Shown: one piece after another, positions 3,729 to 31,664 of the stretch
Position numbering within the stretch: the stretch's first letter is position 1
Layout of the letters: each line of letters opens with the position of its first letter
Source: Solirubrobacteraceae bacterium
GTDB taxonomy: Bacteria > Actinomycetota > Thermoleophilia > Solirubrobacterales > Solirubrobacteraceae
Assembly: GCA_025449845.1 (NCBI GenBank)
Contig: JANWIP010000010.1
Span: 62,001 to 126,000 of the forward strand
Direction of reading: 5' to 3'
Length of the DNA: 64,000 nucleotides
Notes under the pieces: model-generated
Seen by the model: the letters and a program-made list of their open reading frames with translations, nothing else
What the model was told of the DNA's origin: nothing
Database searches by the model: none
Made by a program: the position numbers and the translations under genes

Positions 3729-3755
3729 CTACCCCGCTGTGCAGCAGACTGAACC
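3729..3755 (-). promoter_or_regulatory. Putative SigB/SigF-type promoter of csbD-rsbU-like unit
   Basis: On the minus strand GGTTCAG (3749-3755) is followed after 14 bases by GGGTAG (3729-3734), then a leader with AGGAGG before csbD. It fits the SigB/SigF consensus GTTT-spacer-GGGTA and recurs elsewhere in the window. Confidence 0.6.
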
Positions 3756-3781
3756 AGCCGCCGCGTGGGCGAGCGGGGGTT

Positions 3782-3883
3782 CTAGGCTGTGGCTGACTCG
3801 TCGATGCGCTCGCGCAGCTTGGCGAGCGTGGAGCGCAGCAGCCGTGAAGCCTGCATCTGGGAGACGCCGAGCCGCCGAGCACC
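3782..3883 (-). pseudogene. Sigma-70-family (SigB/F-like) sigma factor, C-terminal tip only
   Basis: Thirty-three codons plus TAG read as the end of a sigma factor region 4 helix-turn-helix: ARRLGVSQMQASRLLR, then TLAKLRERIDES. The Gly-Val-Ser-Gln followed by Ser-Arg-Leu-Leu is the recognition helix seen in SigB/SigF/SigG proteins. Nothing of regions 2-3 precedes it; upstream DNA reads in another frame as an LLM oxidoreductase. It is a relic, but it indicates that a SigB-like gene once stood beside its regulators. Confidence 0.65.
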
Positions 3884-4053
3884 GCCCAGGTGTAGGGCGA
3901 GTGTCCTTGTGAGGCAAGCCAGGGTTGGCAGTGGTCTGAGATGACCGAGAAGTCAAACCCGGCTTGCTCGGCGCCTTGGATGTCGCGCACGAGCGCGTCG
4001 GGTGGAGACTGCTGGCACATCATCGTGTAGCCAAAGCGCCATCTTCCTGCCAA
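3880..4053 (-). pseudogene. F420-dependent LLM-class oxidoreductase, N-terminal remnant
   Basis: About 58 codons match the beginning of LLM-class F420 oxidoreductases: FGYTMMCQQSPP, then AGFDFSVISDHCQPW and HSPYTWAVLGG. The intact gene at 30619-31602 has the equivalent start (ISDHYHPW). Homology stops where the sigma-factor relic begins, and the two read in different frames, so the junction near 3880 is a deletion or illegitimate joining point. A TTG at 4053 is the only plausible start. Confidence 0.65.
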
Positions 4054-4096
4054 TACCCCGAGGTGGCCGTAGTCAAGCCGCCCGGACAGCCAGGTC

Positions 4097-4973
4097 CTAG
4101 TTTTGGCGGTTGCGGCGTTTGGTGAACGGCGCGCGCAGGTCCTGTTCATGGAAAGGTCCGCTCGTGTCGTTTTCGGCCGCGTATCGGTATAGAGCCACCG
4201 CGAAGATCTGCCGCACGACCCCGCTCAGCGCGACGAGGGCGACGAACACTGCGGCCGAGAGCGCGAACACGGCGATGCGCCCCGCAGGGGCATGGCGGGT
4301 CGCGGCGATCCCGATGACGAAGACGACCAGCAGCGGGATCATCAGGACGATCGTCCACGCAGAGACGATCACGTTGCCGCTGATGCCGCCCAGTGCTGCT
4401 TGACGAGGGCTGTGGAGCGTTAGGGGCGTGTGGAGCGCTGCCGCCTTCGAGCGCGAGGATCGGGATCGCGAACAGGCTCGCGATTGACCACGCCAGCCCG
4501 ACGAGGCGCGCGACGATCGCGCCGGCGAGCGGCAGCCGGCGGGCGAGCTGCTCGAGCACGACGCCGAAGATCGTGGCGAACAGCGCCCACACCGCGAGCT
4601 GCCCCACCCGGCTGGCCGGGACCGCGAGTGCGTGGCCGAGGGAGAGTCGTCGTCCTTGCAGTCCTGCGGCTGCGGCAGCAGCGATCGCGGCGTTGAAGAA
4701 CGTGCTCACGAACATCAGCGGGTAGGCGAGGATCAGCGCCACGATGGCCACGCGGCCGTCGACGAGGTGGCCGTGCCCGTGCGCGCCGCTGCTGCCGAGG
4801 CCGGCGACGCCGAAGATAACGGCGACGCCTATTGCTCCCACGAGCGTGGAGAGGATCGTGAGCAGCAGGATCACGCGATCCTCACGGACAACCTGCCAGG
4901 ACGCCTTGGTCAGTCGCCAAGAGCGGGCGATTCGTCCTTCTCTTTGCTCTGGGGCTGAGGCTGTGGCGTTCAT
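4097..4973 (-). pseudogene. DUF6159-like multi-pass membrane protein, frameshifted
   Basis: The first about 190 codons encode a polytopic protein: ARSWRLTKASW, a helix LLLTILSTLVGAIGVAVIFG, and several Ala-rich helices ending at PILALEGG. The rest lies in another frame (GGISGNVIVSAWTIVLMIP onward, stop at 4097), so at least one indel sits near 4395-4440. The protein resembles the DUF6159 group. The ATG at 4973 (or GTG at 4976) overlaps the stop of the small hydrophobic gene upstream. No signature suggests a specific substrate. Confidence 0.6.
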
Positions 4974-5146
4974 CACCAGCGTCCATACCAGCGCCTACGT
5001 CCGCCGCCGACGGGCGCACCGCCGATGAAGAACCCGATCAGCCACAGCAGTATCGCTATCACCAACACGATCCAGAGCAGATGGACGGCGAATCCGAGGC
5101 CGCCGAAGATCGCAAGGATCAGTATCAACGCAAGTAGTGCCACCAT
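4973..5146 (-). CDS. Small two-helix hydrophobic membrane protein
   Basis: A 57-residue protein with two transmembrane segments (LLALILILAIFGGLGF and LLWIVLVIAILLWLIGFFIG) and a Gly/Arg/Trp tail, GGGRRRWYGRW. Similar short hydrophobic proteins occur in stress regulons. The start at 5146 is chosen over an upstream in-frame ATG because AGGAGG lies just before it and a SigB-like promoter lies 50 bases upstream. The stop overlaps the start of the next gene. Confidence 0.75.
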   Translation of the reverse strand: MVALLALILILAIFGGLGFAVHLLWIVLVIAILLWLIGFFIGGAPVGGGRRRWYGRW

Positions 5147-5195: not shown

Positions 5196-5222
5196 CTACC
5201 CCGCCGATCGGAGCGGCTAACC
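5196..5222 (-). promoter_or_regulatory. Putative SigB/SigF-type promoter of small membrane protein
   Basis: Minus-strand GGTTAG (5217-5222), 15-base spacer, GGGTAG (5196-5201). The leader then carries AGGAGG before the ATG at 5146. Confidence 0.6.
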
Positions 5223-5429: not shown

Positions 5430-6020
5430 TTAGTCCGCGTGGGCGGTGGCGCCAGCCTGGGCTGTTTGGTGACGGCCCTCTGCGAACTCCTCGATGATCT
5501 TCGCGCAGAACACCGGCAGGTCGTCCGGCTTGCGGCTCGAGACGAGCCCCTCATCGACAACCACTTCCTCGTCGACCCATTCCCCGCCGGCGTTGCGGAT
5601 GTCGGTTTGCAGGGATGGCCAGGAGGTGAGCTTGCGCCCGCGCACGAGGTCTGCCTCCACGAGTGTCCAGGGGCCGTGACAGATGACGCCGACCGGCTTG
5701 CCCGCAGCGAAGATCTGCTGCACGAACTGGATGGCGCGCTCGTCGGTGCGCAGCTGGTCGGGATTGGCCACGCCGCCTGGGAGCACCAGCGCGTCGTAGT
5801 CGTCGGGGTGGGCGTCCTCGAGGGACTGATCGACGGTGTATGTCGAGCTCTTGTCGAGGTGGTTGAACGCCTGGATCTCGCCACTTTCGGGGGCGATCAG
5901 CTTGGGCGTGGCGCCTGCGTCTTTGACGGCCTTCCAGGGCTCTGTGAGCTCGACCTCCTCGATGCCCTCTTGTGCGGTGAGAAAGGCCACGGTCTTTCCG
6001 TCTAGCTGTGTGGATGCCAT
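5430..6020 (-). CDS. DJ-1/PfpI-family (type 1 glutamine amidotransferase-like) protein
   Basis: A 196-residue cytosolic protein of the PfpI/YhbO branch. The nucleophile elbow GVICHGPW holds the catalytic Cys; upstream motifs VAFLTAQEGIEEVELTEPW and DYDALVLPGG are typical. Family members are stress proteins reported as proteases, glyoxalases or deglycases; which applies here cannot be told. An acidic start (EEVELTEP) and a short His-rich tail are present. A strong SigB-like promoter lies 53 bases upstream. Confidence 0.88.
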   Translation of the reverse strand: MASTQLDGKTVAFLTAQEGIEEVELTEPWKAVKDAGATPKLIAPESGEIQAFNHLDKSSTYTVDQSLEDAHPDDYDALVLPGGVANPDQLRTDERAIQFVQQIFAAGKPVGVICHGPWTLVEADLVRGRKLTSWPSLQTDIRNAGGEWVDEEVVVDEGLVSSRKPDDLPVFCAKIIEEFAEGRHQTAQAGATAHAD

Positions 6021-6072: not shown

Positions 6073-6098
6073 CTACCCCCGGCCCCTGGGTGGCAAAC
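6073..6098 (-). promoter_or_regulatory. Putative SigB/SigF-type promoter of the PfpI gene
   Basis: Minus-strand GTTTGC (6093-6098), 14-base spacer, GGGTAG (6073-6078). This is one of the best matches in the window to the SigB/SigF consensus. Confidence 0.65.
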
Positions 6099-6128: not shown

Positions 6129-6665
6129 TCACAGCTTGTCCTCGGCTGCGCGGTAGGCGACCTGCAGGAAGTCCGAGATGGTGTGCGCGACAAACACGGA
6201 GCTGATGAGGCGCGTGAGGCGCGGGGCGCCGATGAGTCCGAGCGTGAGCGCCGTGGCTACCCATTGGGCTAGGCAGTAGGGGCACACCAGGAGCTCTCCG
6301 ACGGCGAGGTGCAGACCGTGGCCGCAGGGTTCCTCCTCTACCTCGCCCTGCCCGCTTGACTCTTGGTAGCGGGTGAAGGGCGCGCGGATGAAGCTCGTCA
6401 CCTTGTCCTTGGCGAGCAGCCGGCTGAGCTTGTGGGTGGCGATGCCGACGAGCAGCAGGTCGCCGGTCGTGGGTCGCTCGGGCAGCTGGTGGCGACGGGC
6501 GCGCAACGCGATCAGACCGCCGGCGAGGCCGGTGGTGTACGCGCCGGTGAGGATGGCGTAGGAGCCGAGCGGGCGCTCTTGGCCAGGAGCGTAATGCGAG
6601 GAAAGCGAGCCGAGTGGCATCGCGCTCGGCGTGCCGGCATGGCTGTCGGTGGCACGCTCGGGCAT
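6129..6665 (-). CDS. DUF1360-family membrane protein
   Basis: A 178-residue protein with a 30-residue polar N-terminus. Then come YAILTGAYTTGLAGGLIALR, the DUF1360 signature LLLVGIATHKLSRLLAKDKV, and CPYCLAQWVATALTLGL, a Cys-x2-Cys just before a membrane helix. Biochemical function of the family is unknown. The gene starts three bases after the upstream basic protein (6669-6899), so they form one unit under the promoter at 6935-6959. Confidence 0.75.
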   Translation of the reverse strand: MPERATDSHAGTPSAMPLGSLSSHYAPGQERPLGSYAILTGAYTTGLAGGLIALRARRHQLPERPTTGDLLLVGIATHKLSRLLAKDKVTSFIRAPFTRYQESSGQGEVEEEPCGHGLHLAVGELLVCPYCLAQWVATALTLGLIGAPRLTRLISSVFVAHTISDFLQVAYRAAEDKL

Positions 6666-6668
6666 CGT

Positions 6669-6899
6669 CTAGCTGTTGCTCTTTTTGGCGCCCTTGCGTC
6701 CTGCGGCGGCCTTCTGCGCTTTGGTGCCGCCTTGGGTGCTGGCTTTGCGTTTTGTGCCTGAACCTGAACTCTTGCCGCCTCGTTTGGATGAGCCTGGGCT
6801 GTTGGCGATCTTCGCTGCGCGTTCCTTGCTCATGCCCTTTTCGCGGAGCCCTTCGTACTGTTTGTCGTTCTTGACGCTGGGGCCGTGATCTTTGGCCAC
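6669..6899 (-). CDS. Small basic stress-associated protein (DHGPSVKNDKQYEGLR family)
   Basis: A 76-residue protein starting with GTG eight bases from an AGGAGG site. The N-terminus DHGPSVKNDKQYEGLREKGM, then KERAAKIANSPG, is a widespread small-protein signature. The remaining half is a low-complexity Lys/Ser/Gly tail. Such proteins are often annotated hypothetical or Rho-N-like; nucleic-acid binding is only suggested by charge. First gene of a two-gene unit with DUF1360, behind a GGGTAG promoter. Confidence 0.75.
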   Translation of the reverse strand: MAKDHGPSVKNDKQYEGLREKGMSKERAAKIANSPGSSKRGGKSSGSGTKRKASTQGGTKAQKAAAGRKGAKKSNS

Positions 6900-6934: not shown

Positions 6935-6959
6935 CTACCCGCTCGCCGCACCGGCAAAA
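6935..6959 (-). promoter_or_regulatory. Putative SigB/SigF-type promoter
   Basis: Minus-strand TTTTGC (6954-6959), 13-base spacer, GGGTAG (6935-6940), 36 bases before the GTG at 6899. The upstream box lacks the leading G. Confidence 0.5.
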
Positions 6960-7356: not shown

Positions 7357-7382
7357 CTACCCGGCGTGGCGGGGTTCGACAC
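7357..7382 (-). promoter_or_regulatory. Weak SigB/SigF-like promoter, near-leaderless
   Basis: Minus-strand GTGTCG (7377-7382), 14-base spacer, GGGTAG (7357-7362), nine bases from the start at 7347. The upstream box is a poor match. Confidence 0.4.
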
Positions 7383-7573: not shown

Positions 7574-9259
7574 TCATGCGTGGCTGCTCACTTGCTGCTT
7601 GCTCGCGGGGTCGATCCGCTTGCCGTCGAGGCGCTCGGCGAGGCGAGATGCGAGGGCCATGATCGTGAGCGCGGGGTTGGCTGACCCTTGGGTTGGCATC
7701 ACGCTGCCGTCGCACACGAATAGGTTTGGTATTCCCCAGGCGCGGTGGTCTCGGTCGATGACGCCGGTCTCGGGTTTGTCTGACATTGGGCAGCCGCCGA
7801 CGAGGTGGGCGTAGCGGTCGATCGTGAGGATGTCCTGTGCTTCGGCGGCGTGGAGGATTTCGTGAAGCTTGTTCTTGGCGTAGGCGATGTTCGCTCGGTC
7901 GTTCTCGCATTGCGTGTAGTCCAGGCGCGCGACGGGCATCCCGTTACGGTCGGTCTGCTCGGCGAGCGTGACGCGGTTCTCCGCTCTGGGCAGGAGCTCT
8001 GAGAGGCAGCCGATCGTGTACCAGTGGTTGTAGTCGCGCATGTACTCCCTGAGCGACTGCCCCCAGTGTCCGTCGGCGAGGACGTGCTCGGCCCACCCGA
8101 TCGGCAAAGGGCCTACGGTCTGGATCGAGAAGCCGCGGGCGAACCCGCGTCCGGGGTCTGTCTCATAGAACTGCTCGGAGCTGATCTCCGGCGGAGGCGC
8201 CTTGTACATGCGCATCTCCTCGGGAAAGCGTCCAGCGACCTGGGGTGCGCCCTGCACCATGATCCCCCGTCCCACGAGGTCGTTCTCGTTGGCGAGACCG
8301 TTGGGGAACCGGCTGCTGGTGGAGTGCAGCAGCAGCCGTGGCGTCTCGATCGAGTATCCGGCGACAGTGATCGCCTCTGCTGCTTGGAAGTGCTCCTGGT
8401 TGTCGTGGAAGTAGGTGACGCCGGTGCAGCGTCCGGTCTCGTCGGTCTCGATCTGCGTGACCATGCAGTCGGCGCGCACCTCGACGCCGTGCTCCAGCGC
8501 GTCGGGGATGTGGGTGACGAGCGGGGATGCCTTTGCGCCGACCTTGCAGCCTTGTAGGCAGAAGCCGCGGTAGATGCAGTGCGGGCGGTGCCCGAAGCTG
8601 CCATTGGCGATTCCGACTGGGCCAACGCGCATCTCGATCCCGAGACGCCTGGCCCCCTCCCACGCCTTCAGCGCACCGGCGCCGACCGGGTGCGGGCCGT
8701 GCGGATAGTCGTGGGGGTCGCCCCAGGGCCAGAATTCGCCGGCGACGGGCAGCTCGCGCTCTAGGCGCTCGTAGTGGGGCTTGAGATCCTCGTAGGTAAT
8801 GGGCCAGTCGGCGGCTACTCCGTCGCGGGTGTAGACCTCGAAGTCTGAGGGGTGAAAGCGTGGAGTGAACCCGGCGTAGTGGATCATCGAGCCGCCGACG
8901 CCGCGGCCACAGTTGTTCTTGCCGAGCTCCACGGGGTCTTCGCCGCCGATGATGCGCTCCTCCGTCCAGTACAGCGGGTGCGCGCCGGCCTCGTCTGAGA
9001 CCCAATCCTCGTCGGGGTCCCAGAACGGCCCGGCCTCGAGTACGAGCACGCGCCAGCCTTTGCGGGCGAGTCGTTGCGCGAGCGTTGCGCCGCCGGCGCC
9101 CGCACCGACGATCAGCATGTCGACCGTCTCGTCGGGGCTGTAGCGGCGCATACGCTCGCGCCCTGGCACACCTCTCCGGTGTGGATCGAGCAGAAACGCG
9201 GAGTCGTTCTCGGGTGGGCGCACTGCGCCCTTGAGAGCGACACGCAGACGTTCTCTCAC
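7574..9259 (-). CDS. GMC-family FAD oxidoreductase
   Basis: A 561-residue glucose-methanol-choline oxidoreductase. The FAD Rossmann motif GAGAGG is at residues 52-57, followed by VLEAGPFWDPDEDW. The C-terminal block DGSVMPTQGSANPALTIMA and the preceding HLVGGCPM are the usual GMC substrate/FAD motifs. The GTG at 9259 overlaps the upstream stop (GTGA) and keeps the segment LLDPHRRGVPGRERMRRY; a later ATG at 9151 is the alternative. It resembles the large subunit of membrane sugar or alcohol dehydrogenases, and the preceding gene encodes a gluconate-2-dehydrogenase-subunit-3-like partner. No cytochrome subunit follows, so the electron acceptor is unknown. Confidence 0.88.
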   Translation of the reverse strand: MRERLRVALKGAVRPPENDSAFLLDPHRRGVPGRERMRRYSPDETVDMLIVGAGAGGATLAQRLARKGWRVLVLEAGPFWDPDEDWVSDEAGAHPLYWTEERIIGGEDPVELGKNNCGRGVGGSMIHYAGFTPRFHPSDFEVYTRDGVAADWPITYEDLKPHYERLERELPVAGEFWPWGDPHDYPHGPHPVGAGALKAWEGARRLGIEMRVGPVGIANGSFGHRPHCIYRGFCLQGCKVGAKASPLVTHIPDALEHGVEVRADCMVTQIETDETGRCTGVTYFHDNQEHFQAAEAITVAGYSIETPRLLLHSTSSRFPNGLANENDLVGRGIMVQGAPQVAGRFPEEMRMYKAPPPEISSEQFYETDPGRGFARGFSIQTVGPLPIGWAEHVLADGHWGQSLREYMRDYNHWYTIGCLSELLPRAENRVTLAEQTDRNGMPVARLDYTQCENDRANIAYAKNKLHEILHAAEAQDILTIDRYAHLVGGCPMSDKPETGVIDRDHRAWGIPNLFVCDGSVMPTQGSANPALTIMALASRLAERLDGKRIDPASKQQVSSHA

Positions 9260-9984
9260 TCGAGGCCCCGTTCGTGGACATCGTGCACGGGGTCGACTCC
9301 GAACTCCGGTGGGGCCTCCCAGTGCTCGCGTTGCCCGGCGCCGAGCCGTGCGTAGCCGCGTGGGTAGGCGGGGCCGCCGAAGCCAATCTCGTTCCATGCC
9401 CAGGGGTGTGAGTAGAACGCGCCGAGCACGCCGCGCATCACCACTCCCCACGCCTTCGTGACGGGCAGCTCCCAGTCGAGCTTGCCTTCGGAGAACCGCT
9501 GGACGATCTCGTGCTGGGTCTCTGAGCTGGCGGCGGCGAACCCGTCGTCTGAGCCGTGCTCGCGGGCGCTGTCGTCGAGGTTGGCGGCGACCTGCTGCCA
9601 GGTCTCGGGGTCGGGCGGCATGTCGTGGTGGCGAAACCCGTCGAGGCGGCCGGCGTGGAGTTTCGCATCGACCATCTCAAGCACGGGGATGCGCGGCTCT
9701 GCGTCCTGGCCAGTCACGACGTCGCAGAACGCTCCCAGCGTGCGCGCCTCCTGTTCGGTGAAGAAGCGGATCGGTGGGACGTTCGCTACCCGGTCGAGCA
9801 CGACTCCGCGCGTCTTCGCGTCCCAATGGGAGGCGGCGGTCAGCACGTCGTAGTCGGGGTAGCGCCCGCGCATCTGCGGCGTGGTGCCCTTGCGCTGGTG
9901 TGGGAGCCCTGCGGGCGGCCTCGGCGTGGTGTCGCCGCCCTGCTTAGGGAGATGCCCGGCGGAGGAGCTCGGTGCCTGCGCCAT
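9256..9984 (-). CDS. Gluconate 2-dehydrogenase subunit 3-like protein
   Basis: A 242-residue protein if begun at the ATG at 9984, or 205 residues from 9873. Motifs RFFTEQEARTLGAFCDVVTG and GKLDWELPVTKAWGVVMRGV followed by AFYSHPWAWNEIGFGGPAYP match the small subunit 3 that accompanies GMC dehydrogenases. That subunit normally carries a Tat signal for export of the complex; none is visible here, so the complex may be cytoplasmic. It overlaps the GMC gene by four bases, and the 9984 start lies five bases after the upstream stop. Confidence 0.8.
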   Translation of the reverse strand: MAQAPSSSAGHLPKQGGDTTPRPPAGLPHQRKGTTPQMRGRYPDYDVLTAASHWDAKTRGVVLDRVANVPPIRFFTEQEARTLGAFCDVVTGQDAEPRIPVLEMVDAKLHAGRLDGFRHHDMPPDPETWQQVAANLDDSAREHGSDDGFAAASSETQHEIVQRFSEGKLDWELPVTKAWGVVMRGVLGAFYSHPWAWNEIGFGGPAYPRGYARLGAGQREHWEAPPEFGVDPVHDVHERGLE

Positions 9985-9989
9985 TGCCC

Positions 9990-10415
9990 TCAGCGCTCCC
10001 GCTCGGCGAGCGCCGCCGCGAGGCCCATGCCGCCGACGAGAGCGAGCGAGCCGGGCGCGAGCAGCGGCGGCCCCATAACGATGTTGTAGAGCGGCTCTGA
10101 GAACCCGCCGGGCCGCTTGCGCACGCCTTGTATGTGGGTGTAGACGCCGATCAGTCCGTCCAGGCAGTACAGGGCAGATACAGCGGGCAGCACGGTCCTC
10201 GCGGCTCGCTTGGAGCCCACGCCTGCGAGTCCGGCGGCGGTGAGCAGCGGTGAGAGCGCGACGGGGGTCCACATCCACTTGTCGCCGAAGGAGCCGCGGA
10301 AGTGCTCGAAGTAGATCTCCAGGCCGAGCGGCAGCGCGCTTGCGGCGGTCGCGGCGGCGAGGGTGCGCTGCGCGCGTCCGCGGCGCAGGTTTGCCAGCAG
10401 TCGCTTGGCGCTCAT
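9990..10415 (-). CDS. Conserved membrane protein of the GMC operon
   Basis: A 141-residue protein with about four hydrophobic helices, beginning MSAKRLLANLRRGRAQR. Distinct motifs are LEIYFEHFRGSFGDKWMWTP and YTHIQGVRKRPGGFSEPLYN. It is fused by overlaps to the TPP enzyme upstream (ATGA) and lies five bases before the subunit-3 gene. No family was recognised; position suggests a membrane anchor for the dehydrogenase or the oxidase. Confidence 0.7.
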   Translation of the reverse strand: MSAKRLLANLRRGRAQRTLAAATAASALPLGLEIYFEHFRGSFGDKWMWTPVALSPLLTAAGLAGVGSKRAARTVLPAVSALYCLDGLIGVYTHIQGVRKRPGGFSEPLYNIVMGPPLLAPGSLALVGGMGLAAALAERER

Positions 10416-12271: not shown

Positions 12272-12297
12272 CTACCCTTGTGCTGGCGCCGCAAAAC
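12272..12297 (-). promoter_or_regulatory. Putative SigB/SigF-type promoter of the TPP-GMC operon
   Basis: Minus-strand GTTTTG (12292-12297), 14-base spacer, GGGTAG (12272-12277), lying inside the last codons of the upstream glycosyltransferase gene. AGGAGG overlaps the end of the -10 box, implying a very short leader. Confidence 0.6.
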
Positions 12298-22533: not shown

Positions 22534-22552
22534 GCGGGGACTGGTCGGGTAG
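22528..22552 (+). promoter_or_regulatory. Putative SigB/SigF-type promoter, near-leaderless
   Basis: GTTTGA (22528-22533, overlapping the GH15 stop), 13-base spacer, GGGTAG (22547-22552), nine bases before the ATG at 22562. A very good consensus match, with no ribosome site in the short leader. Confidence 0.65.
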
Positions 22553-23656: not shown

Positions 23657-24291
23657 TGCCGAACACGGCGCACGCCTACGAGCACGTGGAGGGGATCTAC
23701 CTGCCGATCGCCGTGGGCGTGTTCGTGCTCGTGCTCGGCACGCTGCTGGTGCTGCTGATCGCAGGCGCGAGACGCAGGACGCCGGGGCGGCGCTCGCAGG
23801 CGCTCGTGCTGGAGACGGCGTATGCGTGCGTCCTGGCGGCCGTGGTGGCTTTCTTGTTGTGGGTGACGTTCACTGCGGAGACGCCGATCGATCGCACGGC
23901 CGCGCATCCTGGGGTTCGGATCAAGGTGATCGCGGCGCAGTGGAGCTGGCGCTTCATTTACGCGGACGGCGTGAGCGTCGCCGATGTGGATACGTGGCAT
24001 CCGACGCCGGCGTATGTGCCGACGGGCAGCGAGGTTGAATTCGTGGGTAGCTCTGAGGATGTGATTCACGGCTTCTGGGTGCCCGGTCTTCACTACCAGC
24101 GGCAGTTCGTGCCGGGCTACACGACCCGCCTTGATCTCCTGTTCCAGGCGCCCGGCTATTACGGCGGTGAGTGCTCGGTGCTCTGTGGAGAGGATCACAG
24201 CGAGATGCACTTCGCCATCCGGGCGGTCAGCCCGCAGCGCTTCGCAGTGTGGCTCGCGCACGAAGCCGCCCGGCAGGGAGTGTCGTCGTGA
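23656..24291 (+). CDS. ctaC: Cytochrome c oxidase subunit II
   Basis: A 211-residue subunit II with two N-terminal membrane helices and a periplasmic cupredoxin domain. The CuA site is complete: VIHGFW supplies the first His, and GGECSVLCGEDHSEMHF the two Cys, Glu, His and Met. IAAQWSWRFIYADG is the aromatic electron-entry region. No fused cytochrome c domain is present; electrons likely come from the QcrC cytochrome in the same operon. Shorter than mycobacterial CtaC and without a lipobox. Confidence 0.93.
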   Translation: MPNTAHAYEHVEGIYLPIAVGVFVLVLGTLLVLLIAGARRRTPGRRSQALVLETAYACVLAAVVAFLLWVTFTAETPIDRTAAHPGVRIKVIAAQWSWRFIYADGVSVADVDTWHPTPAYVPTGSEVEFVGSSEDVIHGFWVPGLHYQRQFVPGYTTRLDLLFQAPGYYGGECSVLCGEDHSEMHFAIRAVSPQRFAVWLAHEAARQGVSS

Positions 24292-25886
24292 ACGCGGTTG
24301 CGGTGCCTGCCCGTGCGGCGTCGCGAACGTTCGCCTCGAGTGACCACAAGCGGATCGCCGGCGCGGCCTGCACGGTCGCGCTCGTGTTCTTCCTGGCGAG
24401 TGGGCTGTTGGCGTTGTTGATGCGAAGCCAGCTCGCGGCGGACGGCGGCGTGGTCTCCCAGCAGACCTACAACGAACTTTTCACGATGCACGGCTCGACG
24501 ATGGTCTACCTCGTGATCGTGCCGGTCGCGCTCGCGGTCGGCCTGTACTTCGTCCCCTTGCAGGTCGGGGCGGCCGAGATCGCAGGGCCGCGCGTGGCGC
24601 TGGCCGGGCTGTGGATGCTGTTGTGCGGCGGCGTGAGCATGTGGTCGGGGTTTCTGACCAGCGGAGGCGCCGCGGCGGCCTCCTGGTGGGGGTTCGACCC
24701 GCTCTCAGATTCGATCCACTCTCCTGGCAGCGGCATGGAACTGTGGATCTTCGGGGTGATACTGGCGACGCTCGGGCAGATCCTGTGGGCGGGCTGCATC
24801 CTGTCGACCGCGCTTCGCCGGCGTGCGCCGGGGATGACGTTGATGCGGATGCCAGTGTTCACCTGGACGATGGTCGTGACCTGCGTGATGGTTGTGTTCG
24901 GGTTCCCCGCACTGCTGCTCGCCCTCGGGTTGCTGTGGGCGCAACGGCACTTCGGGGATGTGCTCATCGGCGGCGCCGGCGCGGTGGACTACCAGGCGCT
25001 GTTCTGGTTCTACGGGCACCCAGTTGTGTACGTGATGTTCTTCCCGTTCGTGGGGATGGTCGGCGAGGTGCTGGCCACGTTCTCATCCCGGCGGTTTTTC
25101 GGCTACTCCGCGTTCGTGGTCGCGCTGCTCGCTTTCGCTGGCTTGTCGATGACGGTGTGGGCGCACCACATGTACACGTTCGGGGTGCTCTCGAACAAGT
25201 ATTTCGCGCTGACATCGACCGCTTTGATCGTCCCGGCGGGTGTGGAGTATTTCGATTTCCTGGCGACGCTGTGGCGAGGCAGGCTGCGTTTCACCACCTC
25301 GTTCTTGTTCGCGCTCGGCTTCCTCGTGCAGTTCCTCGTGGGTGGGTTGACGGGGGTGATCCTTGCCTCGCCGCCGTTGGATTACGGGCTGAACATGTCG
25401 TATTTCGTGGTGGCGCATTTTCACTACACGATCTTTGCGGGCAGCGCGTTCGGCTTGTTCGCTGGCATCTACTACTGGTTTCCCAAGATCACCGGGGCGA
25501 TGTTGCGCGAGCGTCTCGGCAAGCTGCACTTCGTGCTGATGGTAATCGGGACGAACGTGACCTTTTTCCCGATGTTCATCCTGGGTGCTGAGGGCATGAC
25601 GCGGCGGATCGCGCGCTACCCCGCCTCGACGGGCTGGCAGGGGTTGAACATTCTCGAGACTGCCGGGTCGGTCGTGATCGCGCTGTCGGTGCTGGTGTTC
25701 ATGTGGAACATGCTGGTCTCGTTGCGTGACCGGCGCGAGGCTGGAGATGATCCTTGGGGGGCGCAGACGCTCGAGTGGGCGACGAGCTCGCCGCCACCCC
25801 GCCACAACTTCCATGAGCTGCCGCCGATCCGCAGCTACGCGCCCCTTTTGGATCTGCGCGAGGCGCACGAGGAGGTGGGCGTGTGA
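24288..25886 (+). CDS. ctaD: Cytochrome c oxidase subunit I
   Basis: A 532-residue heme-copper oxidase subunit I starting at a GTG that overlaps the ctaC stop. Heme a ligand is in FTMHGSTMVY. The CuB His and crosslinked Tyr are in FYGHPVVYVMF, the CuB His pair in WAHHMYTFG, and heme ligands in VAHFHYTIFAG. The Glu of the canonical GHPEVY is replaced by Val, resembling A2-type oxidases, although the usual YS before HP is YG here. It reduces oxygen and pumps protons in the plasma membrane. Confidence 0.93.
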   Translation: MNAVAVPARAASRTFASSDHKRIAGAACTVALVFFLASGLLALLMRSQLAADGGVVSQQTYNELFTMHGSTMVYLVIVPVALAVGLYFVPLQVGAAEIAGPRVALAGLWMLLCGGVSMWSGFLTSGGAAAASWWGFDPLSDSIHSPGSGMELWIFGVILATLGQILWAGCILSTALRRRAPGMTLMRMPVFTWTMVVTCVMVVFGFPALLLALGLLWAQRHFGDVLIGGAGAVDYQALFWFYGHPVVYVMFFPFVGMVGEVLATFSSRRFFGYSAFVVALLAFAGLSMTVWAHHMYTFGVLSNKYFALTSTALIVPAGVEYFDFLATLWRGRLRFTTSFLFALGFLVQFLVGGLTGVILASPPLDYGLNMSYFVVAHFHYTIFAGSAFGLFAGIYYWFPKITGAMLRERLGKLHFVLMVIGTNVTFFPMFILGAEGMTRRIARYPASTGWQGLNILETAGSVVIALSVLVFMWNMLVSLRDRREAGDDPWGAQTLEWATSSPPPRHNFHELPPIRSYAPLLDLREAHEEVGV

Positions 25887-26257
25887 GACGCGCGGCTGTC
25901 GTCCTGCTCATCTGGGGGTTGTGGCTGGCGGTGCTGACCGGCGTGCAGGCCGTGTTCGCCCCGAAACTGATCCAGTTCGCGATCCCGGCGGTGGCCAGCG
26001 CAGCGTGTGTTCTCGTCGGGCTTGTGGTGTGGGCGCTCGACATCCGCCAGGGCCAGGTTGACGGGCCGCGGCTGATCACCGACAGCTCCGTCGCTACGAT
26101 CGCGCTGGTCGTCGGGGTTGCCGTGGCGCTCATCGGCGCCGGGTTCGGGCTGTGGCTGATCTTGATCGGCGTCGGCATCATGGCGCTCGGCCTCGGCGGC
26201 GTGGTGCGTGAGCAGCGCGAGCGCTCGCGGGCGCTGCGCAGGGAAGGCTTGCGGTGA
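25883..26257 (+). CDS. Small membrane subunit, probable cytochrome oxidase subunit IV-like
   Basis: A 124-residue protein with four hydrophobic helices, GTG start overlapping the ctaD stop and end overlapping the ctaG start. The pattern (helices, a loop LDIRQGQVDGPRLITDSS, helices, basic tail) is reminiscent of actinobacterial oxidase subunit IV (CtaF), but identity is inferred from position. Confidence 0.6.
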   Translation: MRRAAVVLLIWGLWLAVLTGVQAVFAPKLIQFAIPAVASAACVLVGLVVWALDIRQGQVDGPRLITDSSVATIALVVGVAVALIGAGFGLWLILIGVGIMALGLGGVVREQRERSRALRREGLR

Positions 26258-27126
26258 GCGCGCAGCCATCCACGCTCGGCCGTCTGCTGGGTACGTGGAC
26301 CTTGGACCCCGTGCTGCTCTGTGTGTTGGGGATGACGGCTGGGCTTTACGTGTGGGGCGTGTGCCGTGCCTCCTCGCCCTGGCCGATCTGGCGGGCGGTT
26401 TCGTTTCTGGCGGGACTGGTGGTCCTGGCGCTCGCGTTGATGTCGGGGATGGACCAGTACGCGGATGAGCTGCTGTCGGTGCATGTGATCGAGCATCTGC
26501 TGCTGATCCTTATCGCACCGATGCTGCTGTTGTGGGGTGCGCCGGTGCGCCTGGCGCTGAGCGCCTCCACGCCGGCTGCGCGACGTGTGCTGGCGGTGGT
26601 TCTGCGTAGCCGCCCGGTGCGCTTGTTGACGAGGCCGGCGTGCGGGTTCGTGTTGTTTACGGTTGTGGTGCTCGCCACGCATTTGACGGGTGTCTATGAA
26701 GCGGCGCTGCGCGACCAGACACTCCATGCGCTCGAGCACGCCGCCTACTTCTGGACGGGCACGCTGTTTTTGCTGGCGCTGCTCGCGGCCGACCCGATTC
26801 CGCGCCCGCCTGGTGCGATCGCGAGGTTCTCGTGGCTGATGGCCGCGATGCTCGTGATGTCGATTCCTGCCGGCGTGTTCCTGTTCGATGAGCACGTCCG
26901 CTACCCGTTCTATTTGGCGCCGGCGCGGGCCCTGCACGTCTCGGCGCTCGCGGACCAGCAGACAGCTGGGGTGCTGATGCTGGTGGCTGGCGGCGTGGTG
27001 ATGGGTGTGCTGGCGATCGTGATCGCGATGAGCGCGATGCTCGCCGAGGAGCGACGCCAGCAGCGCCGCGACCGCTACGCCGACCGGAGCACCGGGTTGC
27101 CGGTGCGGGAGCCGGCGGGCCGATGA
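26254..27126 (+). CDS. ctaG: Cytochrome c oxidase assembly factor CtaG (caa3 type)
   Basis: A 290-residue seven-helix protein of the caa3_CtaG family. Diagnostic motifs are HVIEHLLLILIAPMLLLWGA, ALEHAAYFWTGTLFLLA and LADQQTAGVLMLVAGG, with His residues thought to handle copper. It supports CuB insertion into subunit I. Overlaps both neighbours by four bases. Confidence 0.9.
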   Translation: MSAQPSTLGRLLGTWTLDPVLLCVLGMTAGLYVWGVCRASSPWPIWRAVSFLAGLVVLALALMSGMDQYADELLSVHVIEHLLLILIAPMLLLWGAPVRLALSASTPAARRVLAVVLRSRPVRLLTRPACGFVLFTVVVLATHLTGVYEAALRDQTLHALEHAAYFWTGTLFLLALLAADPIPRPPGAIARFSWLMAAMLVMSIPAGVFLFDEHVRYPFYLAPARALHVSALADQQTAGVLMLVAGGVVMGVLAIVIAMSAMLAEERRQQRRDRYADRSTGLPVREPAGR

Positions 27127-27920
27127 GACGCCGGCTGATGATGATGGTGGCGCTTGGGTGCGGCGCGCTCGCGCTGACTGACTTCGCCGCTCACTGGGAC
27201 GCCAGCGCAACCCCCTCGCCCACTTCCACTGCTGCTCCTTCTGGGCTGGTGGCGCAGGGTCACGCGCTGTTCGATTCCTCCTGCGCGTCATGCCACGGTC
27301 TGAGCGCGCAGGGCATCAGTGGCCGCGCCCCGAGCCTGCACGGCGTCGGCGCGCTGGCGGCGGACTTCTACCTGCAGACCGGACGAATGCCGCTACCCAA
27401 CCCGAAGGCGCAGCCGCTGCGGACGAGTCCCGCATTTTCGCCGAGCAAGATCAAGGCGCTCGTCGCCTACGTTGGATCGTTCGGCGGGCCTGACATCCCA
27501 ACGGTGCAGCCGAGCCGAGGGTCGCTCGCGGAAGGGCAGCGTCTGTTCGGACTGGACTGCGCGGGCTGCCACACGATCCAGGGTCAGGGCGGGATCGTGA
27601 CCGGCGCGATCGTCCCTGCGCTGAATCAGGCGACACCGAGACAGGTCGGTGAGGCGGTACGGATCGGCCCGTATGTGATGCCTCGCTTCGGCGAAGGCGA
27701 GCTCACCGGCACGGAGGTGAACTCGCTCGCGCGCTACATCCAGAGCATCCAGCACCCAGACAACCTGGGCGGCTGGGGCATCGGTCGGATCGGCCCAATC
27801 CCCGAGGGGATGGTCGCGTGGCTGCTGGCCGCCGCCGCGCTGTTGTTGATTGCAAGGCTGCTCGGCGAGCGCACGAGCGAGCAGCCCGAACGTCCACCGC
27901 GGCCAGGGGGCGGCGCGTGA
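27123..27920 (+). CDS. qcrC: Diheme cytochrome c of the bcc complex
   Basis: A 265-residue exported cytochrome. An N-terminal hydrophobic signal/anchor is followed by two heme c sites, CASCHG (near 57) and CAGCHT (near 142), with distal Met ligands likely in GRMPLPN and PYVMPRFGEG. A C-terminal helix (VAWLLAAAALLLIARLL) anchors it. This is the QcrC layout that directly feeds oxidase CuA in actinobacterial supercomplexes. ATGA/GTGA overlaps with ctaG and qcrA. Confidence 0.92.
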   Translation: MRRRLMMMVALGCGALALTDFAAHWDASATPSPTSTAAPSGLVAQGHALFDSSCASCHGLSAQGISGRAPSLHGVGALAADFYLQTGRMPLPNPKAQPLRTSPAFSPSKIKALVAYVGSFGGPDIPTVQPSRGSLAEGQRLFGLDCAGCHTIQGQGGIVTGAIVPALNQATPRQVGEAVRIGPYVMPRFGEGELTGTEVNSLARYIQSIQHPDNLGGWGIGRIGPIPEGMVAWLLAAAALLLIARLLGERTSEQPERPPRPGGGA

Positions 27921-28909
27921 GCCGGGTCTGGAAGACAATCGTGATGTTCGTGCTGTGGCGCACCGGAGGGCTGCGCGCACGCGGTCAGCAGCCCGAGGTG
28001 GACCCCTCTGAGCGGCACACCGGCGCACCCGCATGGGCGGAGCTATTGGTCGTGGCGGTGCTCCTACTGGTGCCGGTCGCGGCGCTCGCGTTCGTCGCCT
28101 TGTTCGTGCTCGACCCGAACACGCAGCTGCTGGGTCTCGCACTCGGCACGACGCTCGCTTTGCTGGCTTGTGCGCTCGTGCTCGCGGGCCGCTGGCTGGT
28201 GCCACAAGAGACGAAGGTCGAGCAGCGCCCCCGACTGGCCGACCCGGACGCTGCTCGTGAAGTCACCGAGCAGGCCGCCGAGGGTGTGGAGGGCATCACT
28301 CGCCGACGGCTTCTCGCCGGCGCCGCCGGAGTCGCGGGCGCCGGGCTGACGGCGGCGGTCGTGATTCCCGTGGCGGCGCTCGGCCCTGGTCTGGAGGAGC
28401 AGCTGCGACGCACACCGTGGCGGGCAGGGCGCGCGCTCGTGGACGAGCAGGGCAACCCGATGCTCGCGGCCGACATCATCGAACGGAGCTTTCAGACGGC
28501 GTTCCCGCAGGGCGCGGGCACCGCCGCCGAAGGCGGTGGTCAGGAGGACCTGGGCTCCCCCGTCGTGGTGGTGCGCGTTGACCCCGCGACGCTGCGGCTA
28601 CCCGCCGAGCGCGCGGACTGGGCACCGCAGGGCATCCTTGCCTACTCGAAGATCTGCACCCATGCCGCGTGCGCGATATCGCTATTTCGAGACCCGCTCA
28701 GCCCATCCACCGAGTCCAAGGGGCCAGCGCTAGTGTGTCCCTGTCACTACTCCACGTTCGACGTGCTGGACGGTGGCAGCGTCGAGTTCGGCCCCGCAGG
28801 CAGGCCGCTGCCGCAGCTGCCGCTGACTATCGACAGCGCCGGTGTGCTGCGCGCTGCTGGGCTGATGTCGGGGCCTGTCGGCCCGTCCTGGTGGGGAGAC
28901 CCATCGTGA
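27917..28909 (+). CDS. qcrA: Rieske iron-sulfur subunit of the bcc complex
   Basis: A 330-residue QcrA. Two membrane helices lie at about 40-90. A third hydrophobic segment follows a twin-Arg region (TRRRLLAGAAGVAGAG). The Rieske domain binds the 2Fe-2S cluster through CTHAAC and CPCHYSTFD. The usual CTHxGC Gly is Ala. The extra N-terminal helices are the actinobacterial QcrA form. GTG start overlaps qcrC. Confidence 0.92.
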   Translation: MSRVWKTIVMFVLWRTGGLRARGQQPEVDPSERHTGAPAWAELLVVAVLLLVPVAALAFVALFVLDPNTQLLGLALGTTLALLACALVLAGRWLVPQETKVEQRPRLADPDAAREVTEQAAEGVEGITRRRLLAGAAGVAGAGLTAAVVIPVAALGPGLEEQLRRTPWRAGRALVDEQGNPMLAADIIERSFQTAFPQGAGTAAEGGGQEDLGSPVVVVRVDPATLRLPAERADWAPQGILAYSKICTHAACAISLFRDPLSPSTESKGPALVCPCHYSTFDVLDGGSVEFGPAGRPLPQLPLTIDSAGVLRAAGLMSGPVGPSWWGDPS

Positions 28910-30330
28910 ACCACACCGCCAAGGACCGGCCGGGGGACGCGGTGGCGTTCGTGGATGAGCGGCTGGGCGCGGCGCGTGGGATGCGGTGGCTGATGGATTA
29001 CGTGTTCCCTGATCACTGGAGCTTCCTGCTGGGCGAGATCGCCCTGTACTCGTTCGTGGTGCTGGTCCTCACGGGCACGTTCTTGGCGCTGTTCTTCGAC
29101 CCGGACACGACGCAGACCGTCTACCACGGCAGCTACCACGCATTGCAGGGCCAGAGCGTCTCAAATGCCTACGCCTCCACCCTGCACATCTCCTTTGATG
29201 TATCGGGCGGGCTGCTCGCCCGGCAGGTTCACCATTGGGCGGCGCTGGTGTTCGTCGCGGCGATCACCCTCCATCTGCTGCGGATCGTGTTCACCGGCGC
29301 GTTTCGCAAGCCCCGCGACATCAACTACTTCATCGGCGTCACCCTGTTGGCGCTCGCGATCTTGGAGGGCTTCGCGGGCTACTCGCTCCCCGACGATCTG
29401 CTCTCGGGGATGGGGTTGGCGATCGCGTGGGCAGTCGCGATGTCGCTCCCTTTGATCGGCGGCCCGTTCGCAACGGCGTTGTGGGGCGGCAGGTTCCCTG
29501 GGTCGACCGCGTTCGAGTCGCGGCTGTTCATCGCGCATGTGTTCCTGCTCCCGGCGATCATCGGTGGACTGATCGCGGTGCACTTGGCGATCATCATGCG
29601 CCAGCGCCACAGCCAGTTCCCCGGCCCCGGCCGCCGCGAGGACAACGTGGTGGGCACCCCGATGTGGCCTGGGTACGCGCTGCGCTCGCTCGGCTTGTTC
29701 GCGGCGGTCGCCGCGCTGCTGGTGCTGATGGGCGGCCTGATCCAGATCAACCCGGTGTGGCTGTGGGGCCCCTATCACCCCTATATCGGCACGAATGGCG
29801 CGCAGCCGGACTGGTATCTGGGGTGGCTGATCGGGGCGCTGCGACTGATGCCGAACCTGGAGATCCACGCCTTCGGACACACATTCGTACCGAACCCGTT
29901 TTTTGGCGGCGTGTTGTTTCCCGGCATCGTGTTCGGGCTGTTGTATGCGCTGCCGTGGCTTGACCGGCGCTTCATCAGCAGGGACTACCGGCGCCACGAT
30001 CTGCTTGAGCGTCCGCGCGATAATCCGCGGCGCAGCGCGCTTGCCGCTGCGCTGCTCTCGGCGGTGGCGGTGGTGTTCGCGGCGGGCTCGGCCGACCGTC
30101 TGTTCTTCCAGTTCGGGTTTGGCTATGAAGGCGCGGTGTGGTTCTTCCGCGGCGCGTTCCTAGTCGTGCCGGTCATCACTTATCTCGTCACGAAACGGGT
30201 GTGCGCGGGACTCGCGCGAGAGCAGGCGCATCCGTTGCGGGGCTGGAGTGGCCACGTCGTGATCCGCAACCGCAGCGGGGGCTTCGACGCTGATGCCGAA
30301 GCTATCGAGCTTGATACGGCCGAGCGCTAG
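28906..30330 (+). CDS. qcrB: Cytochrome b subunit of the bcc complex
   Basis: A 474-residue cytochrome b. Heme ligand pairs are visible in VHHWAALVFVAAITLHLLR and in FIAHVFLLPAIIGGLIAVH. The quinol-site motif equivalent to PEWY appears as PDWYLGWL. The N- and C-terminal domains are fused as in QcrB. GTG start overlaps qcrA. With the oxidase genes this would form a bcc-aa3 supercomplex oxidising menaquinol. Confidence 0.93.
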   Translation: MNHTAKDRPGDAVAFVDERLGAARGMRWLMDYVFPDHWSFLLGEIALYSFVVLVLTGTFLALFFDPDTTQTVYHGSYHALQGQSVSNAYASTLHISFDVSGGLLARQVHHWAALVFVAAITLHLLRIVFTGAFRKPRDINYFIGVTLLALAILEGFAGYSLPDDLLSGMGLAIAWAVAMSLPLIGGPFATALWGGRFPGSTAFESRLFIAHVFLLPAIIGGLIAVHLAIIMRQRHSQFPGPGRREDNVVGTPMWPGYALRSLGLFAAVAALLVLMGGLIQINPVWLWGPYHPYIGTNGAQPDWYLGWLIGALRLMPNLEIHAFGHTFVPNPFFGGVLFPGIVFGLLYALPWLDRRFISRDYRRHDLLERPRDNPRRSALAAALLSAVAVVFAAGSADRLFFQFGFGYEGAVWFFRGAFLVVPVITYLVTKRVCAGLAREQAHPLRGWSGHVVIRNRSGGFDADAEAIELDTAER

Positions 30331-30452
30331 AGATGAACGTAATCCCCTGCCGCTCGTTCAGCCTGATTGCGTGCGCCGCGTCTACCTTCCGCTCTGCTGC
30401 TGGTCTTTGATGGCGGCGCACATGATCAGGCGGGCCCGGTGCGCCTCGCTGC

Positions 30453-30484
30453 GCAGACCGGCTCTTGAGCAGACCGGCTCTTGA
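30453..30484. repeat. Perfect 16-bp tandem duplication
   Basis: The unit GCAGACCGGCTCTTGA occurs twice head to tail. It lies in the 288-base non-coding gap between qcrB and the LLM gene, which holds no other recognisable feature. Probably a slippage product. Confidence 0.8.
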
Positions 30485-30618
30485 GATCATCGGCTCCGCG
30501 ACGGGCGTGGAGGCTCTGAGGAGCCGGCGCGCTGCTCCGGAGAGGCTGGTGAGCTGTGGCCCCGGTGCGCCGCGCCAGCCTGGGGGGCGAGGCGTTGGCG
30601 CGGATGTGGCGTGGGTGC

Positions 30619-31602
30619 TCATGCTGTGGTTGAGATGAGTGTTGAGGCGTCGCTGTTGAAGTGCGGCAGGATCTCGTTGGCGTAGGTCTGGAAGAAGCGT
30701 TCTTGGTCGGGGCCGATCTGTTGGATGTAGAGCTCGTCGAACCCGGCGTCGCGGTAGCGACGGATCGCCTGCAGGTGCAGGTCGAGGTCGGGGCCGCACG
30801 GGACGGCTTCGGCCACCCTGTCCTCGCTGACGAGCTCGCTTGCTTGCTCGAAGTGTGCGGGCGTCGGCAGGATCTGCGCGAGCTCGCCGGGTAGCTGCTC
30901 GTTGGGCCACAGCCGGTGTGCGGTGGCGCGTGCTTGGTGCTCGTCAAGGGACCAGCAGACCTTCATGCCGCCCGCGACAGGCCCGTTTCCGCCGGCGTCG
31001 CGGAACCGTTTGACTTCTTCCTTCTCGGGCTGGACGGTGCAGTAGCCGTCGCCGATTCTGGCGGCGAGGCTGGTGGCCTTGGGGCCGAACCCGGAGATGA
31101 GGATCGGCGGTGTCTGCTCGGGCAGGTCATAGATGCGGGCGTTCTCTACTTGGTAGTGGTGTCCGCGGTGGCTTTGCATCCCGCCCTGCCAGAGGGTGCG
31201 GATGACCTGCACGGCCTCCTCGAGCATCTCTAGGCGCTCGTCAGCCGCGGGCCAGTGATCGCCGAGGATGTGCTCGTTGAGCGCCTCGCCGCTACCGAGA
31301 CCGAGCGCGAAGCGTCCCTCCAGCAGCACCGCGCAGGTCGCGGCGGCCTGTGCGATTACGGCCGGGTGGATGCGGACGGTGGGGCACGTCACTGCGGTTG
31401 TGACCTTCATCGTGGAGGTCGCCTGCGCGAGCGCGCCGATGGTCGACCAGACGAAGCCGCTGTGTCCCTGCGCGTCGTTCCAGGGGTGGTAGTGGTCTGA
31501 GATCCACAGCCCTTGGAAGCCGGCGTCCTCGGCCATGCGCGCCTGCGCGATGAGCTCGCGGGGGCCGAACTCCTCGCTGGACAAGAAATAGCCGATCCTC
31601 AC
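30619..31602 (-). CDS. F420-dependent LLM-class oxidoreductase
   Basis: A 327-residue luciferase-like TIM-barrel protein. RIGYFLSSEEFGPREL, GLWISDHYHPWND and GFVWSTIGALAQAT match the G6PDH-like F420 oxidoreductase branch; LGLGSGEALNEHILGDHWP and ILISGFGPKATSLAARIGDG are further family blocks. It should reduce or oxidise a substrate with coenzyme F420. The GTG start at 31602 is preceded by AAGGAG. A SigB-like GGGTAG box is upstream. Confidence 0.88.
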   Translation of the reverse strand: MRIGYFLSSEEFGPRELIAQARMAEDAGFQGLWISDHYHPWNDAQGHSGFVWSTIGALAQATSTMKVTTAVTCPTVRIHPAVIAQAAATCAVLLEGRFALGLGSGEALNEHILGDHWPAADERLEMLEEAVQVIRTLWQGGMQSHRGHHYQVENARIYDLPEQTPPILISGFGPKATSLAARIGDGYCTVQPEKEEVKRFRDAGGNGPVAGGMKVCWSLDEHQARATAHRLWPNEQLPGELAQILPTPAHFEQASELVSEDRVAEAVPCGPDLDLHLQAIRRYRDAGFDELYIQQIGPDQERFFQTYANEILPHFNSDASTLISTTA

Positions 31603-31638
31603 CTCATGGTCTCCTTGATCGTCGCGTTCGCGGCTTTT

Positions 31639-31664
31639 CTACCCCACAGCGGCGCGACTCAATC
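31639..31664 (-). promoter_or_regulatory. Putative SigB/SigF-type promoter of the LLM gene
   Basis: Minus-strand GATTGA (31659-31664), 14-base spacer, GGGTAG (31639-31644), 37 bases before the GTG start. A 7-bp hairpin (31669-31688) lies just upstream of the -35 box. Confidence 0.5.

What the first reader, a model, noticed from the sequence alone, without database searches (positions are those of the whole stretch)
3729..31664. A local regulon of SigB/SigF-type promoters around an RsbU/RsbV-like switch
The same bipartite signal (GTTT-like box, 13-15 bp, GGGTAG) precedes csbD (3729-3755), a small membrane protein (5196-5222), PfpI (6073-6098), the DHGPSV protein/DUF1360 unit (6935-6959), the TPP-GMC operon (12272-12297), SDR-GH15 (19669-19694), the enolase-superfamily/oxidase unit (22528-22552) and the LLM enzyme (31639-31664). 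A weaker case is 7357-7382. These genes are classic stress types, and the switch proteins (1736-3487, 1341-1739, 782-1159) lie among them, yet the only sigma gene trace is a relic. The GGGTAG spelling, rather than GGGTAT, is consistent at all sites.
Basis: partly seen in the sequence, partly recalled or inferred. Interest (0 to 1): 0.72.

Follow-up and report, generated by a model that had tools for sequence, protein, structure and literature searches.

The report
Clustered general-stress promoters near RsbU switch
In a soil actinobacterium, a 28-kb stretch of stress, respiration and sugar genes carries about ten copies of one stress-type promoter beside its own protein switch, while the sigma factor that probably reads them sits elsewhere in the genome; it is a clear but little-studied example of a known kind of stress regulon.

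Summary
All eight GGGTAG boxes are where stated, 15-75 nt before a start codon. GGGTAG ranks first of 4096 hexamers upstream of genes in window 1-33000 (9 seen, 1.21 expected) but is not enriched in 102 kb of the same contig or in 14 stretches of other contigs. A model trained only on 23 sites from relatives ranks six of the eight first. Genome-wide, 10 of 78 distinct GNTT-N15-17-GGGTAB matches fall in these 28 kb (0.67 expected), before genes or remnants; outside, 29 of 47 examined lie inside genes. Relatives keep such promoters before PfpI, small membrane protein, DUF7218, LLM, ferritin-like and oxidase genes, often near an intact SigB/F/G sigma gene. Three corrections. The genome has two SigB/F/G genes over the cut-off; the one on contig 22, with RsbW, RsbU and RsbV, is the likely reader. 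GGGTAG is no rule: relatives use G, C, T or A, and Streptomyces SigB-type promoters with GGGTAG are published. Three sites were missed, two GGGTAT. The kind is known; the dense cluster, its missing sigma gene and decaying members are the interesting part.

The parts
3729..3755 (-). SigB/F-type promoter GGTTCA-N15-GGGTAG of csbD-rsbU-rsbV
   Evidence: score 12.1
3506..3694 (-). CsbD-like protein, 62 aa
   Evidence: PF05532 E 8e-12
1736..3487 (-). RsbU-like switch protein: GAF, PP2C/SpoIIE phosphatase, HATPase_c_2
   Evidence: relatives of 67%, 62% and 54% identity in three same-genus genomes
1341..1739 (-). RsbV-like STAS protein with the DSAG serine
782..1159 (-). second STAS protein with DSSG serine
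3803..3880 (-). remnant of a SigB/F/G sigma gene (C-terminal, 26 codons)
   Evidence: TIGR02980 positions 201-226, E 2e-4
3847..4038 (-). 5' remnant of an LLM (luciferase-like) gene, running into the sigma remnant
   Evidence: 75% over 64 aa to the LLM gene before rsbU in L053
   Evidence: score 16.1; L053 counterpart has GCTTGACTCG..GGGTAG
5196..5222 (-). promoter GGTTAG-N15-GGGTAG of the small membrane protein
   Evidence: 12.8
4973..5146 (-). small hydrophobic (membrane) protein, 57 aa; its L167 relative has no Pfam match
   Evidence: match in 14 of 41 genomes searched, own included
6073..6098 (-). promoter GTTTGC-N14-GGGTAG of pfpI
   Evidence: 19.6
5430..6020 (-). DJ-1/PfpI protein
   Evidence: PF01965 E 1e-51
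6935..6959 (-). promoter TTTTGC-N13-GGGTAG of DUF7218/DUF1360
   Evidence: 18.2; GGGTAG also before the L053 DUF7218 gene
6669..6899 (-). DUF7218 protein (the 'DHGPSV' protein), 76 aa
   Evidence: PF23855 E 1e-15 in the longer frame; translation
6129..6665 (-). DUF1360 protein
7357..7382 (-). weak candidate, GGGTAG without a good -35 box; probably chance
   Evidence: 12.6
12272..12297 (-). promoter GTTTTG-N14-GGGTAG of the TPP-enzyme/GMC operon
   Evidence: 18.2
7574..12202 (-). operon: TPP enzyme, 141-aa protein (not scanned), gluconate 2-dehydrogenase subunit 3, GMC oxidoreductase
   Evidence: (14.8); ferritin-like gene of L169 has GGTTGTC..GGGTAG
17505..17693 (-). internally shortened ferritin-like gene
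   Evidence: matches residues 1-26 and 112-165 of the 171-aa L169 protein, 61-62%
19619..19644 (-). possible divergent promoter GATTCG-N14-GGGTAT, 116 nt before the HAD gene 18837-19508
   Evidence: 13.0
19669..19694 (+). promoter GGTTGG-N14-GGGTAG of SDR-GH15
   Evidence: 16.5
19733..22533 (+). SDR dehydrogenase and GH15/trehalase-like glycosidase
22528..22552 (+). promoter GTTTGA-N13-GGGTAG of the enolase-superfamily/oxidase unit
   Evidence: 21.4, best in window
22562..30330 (+). enolase-superfamily gene, then COX2, COX1, a 124-aa protein (not scanned), CtaG, cytochrome c, Rieske and cytochrome b genes
31639..31664 (-). promoter GATTGA-N14-GGGTAG of the LLM gene
   Evidence: 16.6
30619..31602 (-). 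LLM (bacterial-luciferase family) enzyme
   Evidence: PF00296 E 2e-51

Best explanation
The boxes are real promoters of the SigB/SigF class (G-N-T-T-G, 13-15 bp spacer, GGGTAN). They make a general-stress regulon concentrated in about 28 kb of contig 10: CsbD, small membrane protein, PfpI, DUF7218/DUF1360, LLM, a ferritin-like remnant, GMC/TPP, GH15 and an alternative oxidase/bc unit. The likely reader is the genus's core SigF-like sigma on contig 22 (HMM match C22:30084-30752), held by its RsbW and released when unphosphorylated RsbV binds RsbW. The window's csbD-rsbU-rsbV unit is itself behind such a promoter, so its GAF-PP2C protein would add a second input and positive feedback by dephosphorylating an RsbV. 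A further sigma gene once stood beside LLM/csbD and is now a fragment. Shown: promoter boxes, clustering, conservation, sigma and switch genes. Inferred: which sigma reads them, phosphatase direction, feedback, inducing stress.
For: Boxes at the stated places, upstream and over-represented only here among the regions compared. Clustering 10 of 78. Of 300 column-shuffled models 2 reached its 8 upstream among the top 12. Conservation: GGGTAN within 60 nt before pfpI in 8 of 12 relative rows, two of them in other families of the order; small membrane protein: GNTT-N15-17-GGGTAN in 7 of 14 rows and GTTT-N16-GGGCAT in 4 more. L053: 5 of 6 GGGTAG are upstream. L169: intact sigma next to PfpI, ferritin-like, transporter and a COX2-bearing unit, each behind such boxes. 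Core sigma: clade B, over the TIGR02980 cut-off; GGGTA 120-220 nt before its HMM match in 11 of 15 genomes, 0.58 expected. In G000 it stands with RsbW, a transporter (GTTTTA..GGGTAC), RsbU and RsbV. All 8 genus genomes with a close pfpI have clade B (15 of 24 have it; P 0.009). Motifs GGDWYD, GDVVGRG, TDG, EDD and RsbV DSAG are present (their meaning recalled).
Against: No expression data. The pattern is not enriched genome-wide: 80 rows against 118 for the reversed control, 21 against 47. 10 of 47 outside matches also lie upstream, few of them convincing. The link to C22 is indirect: before the clade-B sigma genes only 3 of 15 have GNTT..GGGTA, others have GCAT or nothing clear as -35 box, and the zone was chosen. 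No GGGTAG stands within 110 nt before a called gene in the 20-kb stretch of C22 either. C6 carries a second SigB/F/G gene with an RsbW-like neighbour. The tree has 14 of 30 inner branches open, and three SigB/F/G rows were not placed (G020:C63, G011:C28, G021:C255); if G021:C255 is clade B too, the pfpI P is 0.017. The genomes are incomplete, so absences are soft. csbD and small-membrane-protein sites have the longest spacer and low scores. The HATPase part has DxGxW where RsbW has DxGxG, so kinase activity is doubtful.
Confidence: 0.72

Rival explanations
1. Orphaned island: the promoters were built for the island's own sigma (the remnant at 3803-3880), whose loss left them silent or only weakly read by the core sigma.
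For: Sigma remnant fused to an LLM remnant; another member decaying (ferritin-like remnant); transposase, replication-relaxation and recombinase genes in 44-64 kb of the window; G011 has an intact accessory sigma in a comparable cluster.
Against: Promoter boxes are well kept, even before remnants; L053 has the same kind of promoters and switch with no sigma match on its 22.7-kb contig; the core sigma's own upstream regions carry GGGTA.
Confidence: 0.2
2. The contig-6 sigma, not the contig-22 one, reads the boxes.
For: C6:163281-163958 is also over the TIGR02980 cut-off and has an RsbW-like gene 1.4 kb away.
Against: No GGGTAG within 110 nt before a called gene in its 20-kb stretch (this is equally so for C22); six genomes with only this clade lack a close pfpI.
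Confidence: 0.15
3. Chance or composition: GGGTAG is common in this GC-rich DNA and the reader picked matches before genes.
For: No genome-wide excess of the pattern; GGGTAG is the commonest GGGTAN in the whole window, 38 of 65.
Against: Upstream excess only in this region among those compared, relative-trained model, conservation across genomes.
Confidence: 0.03

Closest known systems
SigB-homologue promoters of Streptomyces coelicolor (PMC8346170; passages including Table 2 seen)
   Same: -35 boxes such as GTTTGC, GCTTGG, GTTTCG, spacers 12-15, -10 GGGTAN, including GGGTAG at SCO1566p, SCO7446p and SCO1276p, and GGGCAT at SCO6014p and SCO2026p
   Different: Another class of actinobacteria; there nine sigma homologues with overlapping promoters, here two over the cut-off
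Mycobacterial SigF regulon and partner switch (PMC7693655 and PMC4694148; passages seen)
   Same: GGWWT-N16-17-GGGTAY / GTTT-N14-19-GGGTA promoters, RsbW/antagonist control, a multi-domain phosphatase-kinase protein (Rv1364c), a link to respiration
   Different: There the sixth base is given as Y and the genes listed carry locus numbers over the whole genome; here about ten sites lie in 28 kb and G is commonest
Bacillus subtilis SigB operon (recalled; only the promoter consensus seen, in PMC8346170)
   Same: csbD-type stress genes, RsbU/RsbV/RsbW logic, switch genes behind a SigB promoter
   Different: Sigma gene lost from this locus; the RsbU-like protein carries a HATPase domain

Membership tests
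SigB/SigF-type promoter | -10 GGGTAN with G-N-T-T -35 box at 12-15 bp | tested here: met
   8 of 8 listed sites hold GGGTAG at 13-15 bp from a -35-like box; 7 of 8 begin with G, 6935 with T
SigB/SigF-type promoter | upstream of genes, conserved in relatives | tested here: met
SigB/SigF-type promoter | transcription start just downstream, dependent on the sigma | not testable with these tools
   needs start mapping
SigB/F/G sigma subfamily (TIGR02980) | score over 234.35 bits | tested here: met
   for genes elsewhere in the genome: C6 270.8, C22 267.9 bits
SigB/F/G sigma subfamily (TIGR02980) | intact sigma gene inside the window | tested here: not met
   only 26 codons at 3803-3880, 22.3 bits
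RsbU/RsbV partner switch | PP2C phosphatase with metal-binding motifs and STAS protein with phosphorylatable serine | tested here: met
   domains, residues (motif meaning recalled)
RsbU/RsbV partner switch | RsbW kinase with N, G1 and G2 boxes | tested here: inconclusive
   N box and GRGL present, G1 reads DVGRW
General-stress regulon | induction by salt, stationary phase or other stress | not testable with these tools
   no expression data

The most novel reading that the evidence does not exclude
A stress island that lost its own sigma gene but kept its promoters and protein switch, and was taken over by the core SigF of the host: a regulon rewired by losing its master, with the leftover switch feeding the host's stress decision and putting a terminal oxidase under it.
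Probability: 0.3. Interest if true: 0.62.

Novelty: new member of a known kind. Interest (0 to 1): 0.42.

Why it matters
It gives a promoter model and a gene list for general stress control in a soil lineage (Solirubrobacteraceae). Full-text searches of the held library for Thermoleophilia with partner switching, Solirubrobacterales with SigF and Solirubrobacteraceae with RsbU found no paper; Solirubrobacter with sigma factor and stress listed nine whose titles and abstract openings did not look to treat it. It also shows a regulon physically packed into one region while its sigma gene is elsewhere, which makes rewiring testable.

Tried and rejected
GGGTAG as a special spelling: rejected. An intact sigma gene in the cluster of relatives with the nearest RsbU relatives: no tblastn match to four sigma proteins in the fetched loci L053, L131, L128, L080, L129, L130. 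7357-7382 and the GGGTAG at 32740 as promoters: no good -35 box. tRNA-bounded island: no tRNA in the window. A search for CsbD, PfpI and sigma factor in actinobacteria listed six papers, none of them on this by title. No structure prediction was run.

Limits of counts: the gene finder is my own codon-usage script, so starts are approximate. The 23 training sites were picked by eye among GGGTA matches before genes of relatives, so GGGTA itself is there by construction. One search examined 47 of the 68 distinct matches outside the 28 kb (mainly the higher-scoring ones and those in stretches already held); 2 overlapping duplicate rows were dropped beforehand. Of 47: 10 upstream within 130 nt (2 of these also inside another gene), 29 inside genes, 8 neither. 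In one search the '10 of 10' for the 28 kb was set by hand: one stands before a remnant (4053-4078), two are 116-118 nt from the start. In one search I used the 13 pfpI rows with E up to 5e-58 of the 39 rows, and 14 of the 15 rows (the partial G018 row left out); 2 of the 27 (L216, L248) were wrongly anchored by my script and count as misses. Small membrane protein and clade B: 10 of 12 genomes (P 0.045), or 11 of 13 with the G018 row (P 0.021).
Full report
Where it is. The window is contig 10, bases 62001-126000, of a 3.27-Mb genome in 36 contigs.

The boxes. All eight listed places hold GGGTAG with a G/T-N-T-T box 13-15 bp before it. In 90-nt upstream zones of the 36 genes called in window 1-33000, GGGTAG comes first of all 4096 hexamers by P: 9 seen, 1.21 expected, P 5e-6. 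In window 33001-64000 it is 0 against 0.46, in 102 kb of the rest of contig 10 it is 2 against 1.13, and in 14 stretches of other contigs 5 against 3.25. Two of the nine (before 7347 and 32755) have no good -35 box; the DUF7218 site is not among the nine because that gene was not called.

A test with relatives' sites. I trained a two-box model on 23 sites from relatives, none from this genome, picked by eye among GGGTA matches before genes. The csbD and small-membrane-protein sites score lower (12.1 and 12.8) because of a longer spacer, and nine hits of 12 or more in window 33001-64000 stand before no gene, so score alone does not carry those two. The training set includes upstream regions of relatives of pfpI, the small membrane protein, DUF7218, LLM and the ferritin-like gene, so it is not independent for those; it is for csbD, TPP-GMC and SDR-GH15, and largely for the enolase gene (one training site stands before an oxidase unit with another first gene). 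In 300 column-shuffled models 2 reached the real count (8 of the top 12 upstream) and 5 the top-8 count (6); shuffles often leave GGG in place, so this control is strict.

GNTT-N15-17-GGGTAB occurs 80 times in the genome (78 distinct) against 118 for the reversed pattern, so there is no genome-wide excess. But 10 of the 78 lie in C10:65729-93664, where 0.67 are expected (P about 2e-9; the interval was set after the fact). Of 47 examined outside matches, 29 lie inside genes, 8 are neither, and 10 are within 130 nt before a called start. The more convincing of those by gene content are a transporter next to the contig-22 sigma gene, a second small-membrane-protein gene on contig 19 and a DUF6458 gene on contig 24 (Pfam). 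So the regulon is mostly, not wholly, local.

Conservation. Close pfpI relatives: GGGTAN within 60 nt before the match in 8 of 12 relative rows, among them genomes of two other families of the order; the one of family f3 has no clear -35 box. Sixth base in the nine including the window: G 6, C 1, T 1, A 1. Small membrane protein: GNTT-N15-17-GGGTAN in 7 of 14 rows (two of the seven are of this genome), GTTT-N16-GGGCAT in 4 more, neither in 3, one of which was wrongly anchored. In L053 five of six GGGTAG are upstream, before a DUF892/ferritin-like gene, an alcohol dehydrogenase, pfpI, DUF7218 and an LLM gene that is followed by rsbU and rsbV. In L169 (G011) an intact accessory sigma stands with pfpI, a gene like DUF892 by its first residues, a ferritin-like gene, a transporter, and a 74-aa gene followed by COX2 and genes that look like further oxidase parts by their first residues; each of the five units is behind GNTT..GGGTAG or GGGTAC. 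The oxidase link therefore recurs.

The sigma. The genome has 21 sigma-70 region-2 matches; two SigB/F/G genes pass the curated cut-off, on contigs 6 and 22. The contig-22 gene belongs to a clade found in 15 of the 24 genus genomes searched, counting a sister row in G014; three rows were not placed. In G000 it is followed by RsbW, the transporter, RsbU and RsbV genes. GGGTA stands 143-186 nt before the HMM match of this sigma in 11 of 15 genomes, 0.58 expected, as for an autoregulated SigF, though only 3 of 15 show a G-N-T-T box there and 5 show GCAT. All 8 genus genomes with a close pfpI have this clade (P 0.009; 0.017 if one unplaced row belongs to it). pfpI or the small-membrane gene lies within 10 kb of it in G003, G011, G012, G013, G015 and G016 (places). 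This makes it the best candidate reader.

The switch and the relics. csbD, rsbU, rsbV form one unit behind the 3729-3755 promoter. The RsbU-like protein has GAF, PP2C and HATPase parts; phosphatase motifs and the RsbV serine are present, the G1 box of the HATPase part is altered. Upstream lie an LLM 5' fragment (75% to the L053 LLM) running straight into a sigma 3' fragment, with the LLM promoter still readable. The fragment matches the G017:C33 accessory sigma best among the sigmas compared, but over 26 codons that is weak. A ferritin-like gene at 17505-17693 is internally shortened, again with a promoter kept. Local decay with retained promoters is plain.

Known or new. Published Streptomyces SigB-type promoters include GGGTAG and GGGCAT (PMC8346170, passages); mycobacterial SigF uses GGWWT-N16-17-GGGTAY and a partner switch that answers respiration block (PMC7693655, passages; PMC4694148, passages). 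The kind is known. New here are the lineage, the gene list and the packing. Searches for this lineage with partner switching, SigF or RsbU found no paper in the held library; one with sigma factor and stress listed nine papers, judged by title and abstract start only.

Noticed in passing
L237, L238, L239, L241 upstream of the small membrane protein: Four relatives read GTTT-N16-GGGCAT where others have GGGTAN, a possible variant -10 box.
   Followed up: partly
window 44518-45573, 59966-61513, 61939-63423: DDE transposase, replication-relaxation protein and serine recombinase, with a GC dip to 0.53 at 48-52 kb: a mobile-looking region next to the stress cluster.
   Followed up: no
window 17931-18806; L053 6707-7558; L129 13325-14161; L169 7600-8646: A topoisomerase IB gene recurs near the switch genes in L053 (79%) and L129 (64%) and, by its first residues, in L169.
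   Followed up: no
G000 C22:35363-38090: A large gene (888 aa called) beside the sigF operon with two opposed GGGTAG sites around its start.
   Followed up: no
window 159-932: CBS-domain protein with a weak RES-domain match (below cut-off) downstream of the switch genes.
   Followed up: no
window 33663-34118: DUF892 protein matching only positions 85-155 of the 159-position family, perhaps another shortened stress gene.
   Followed up: no
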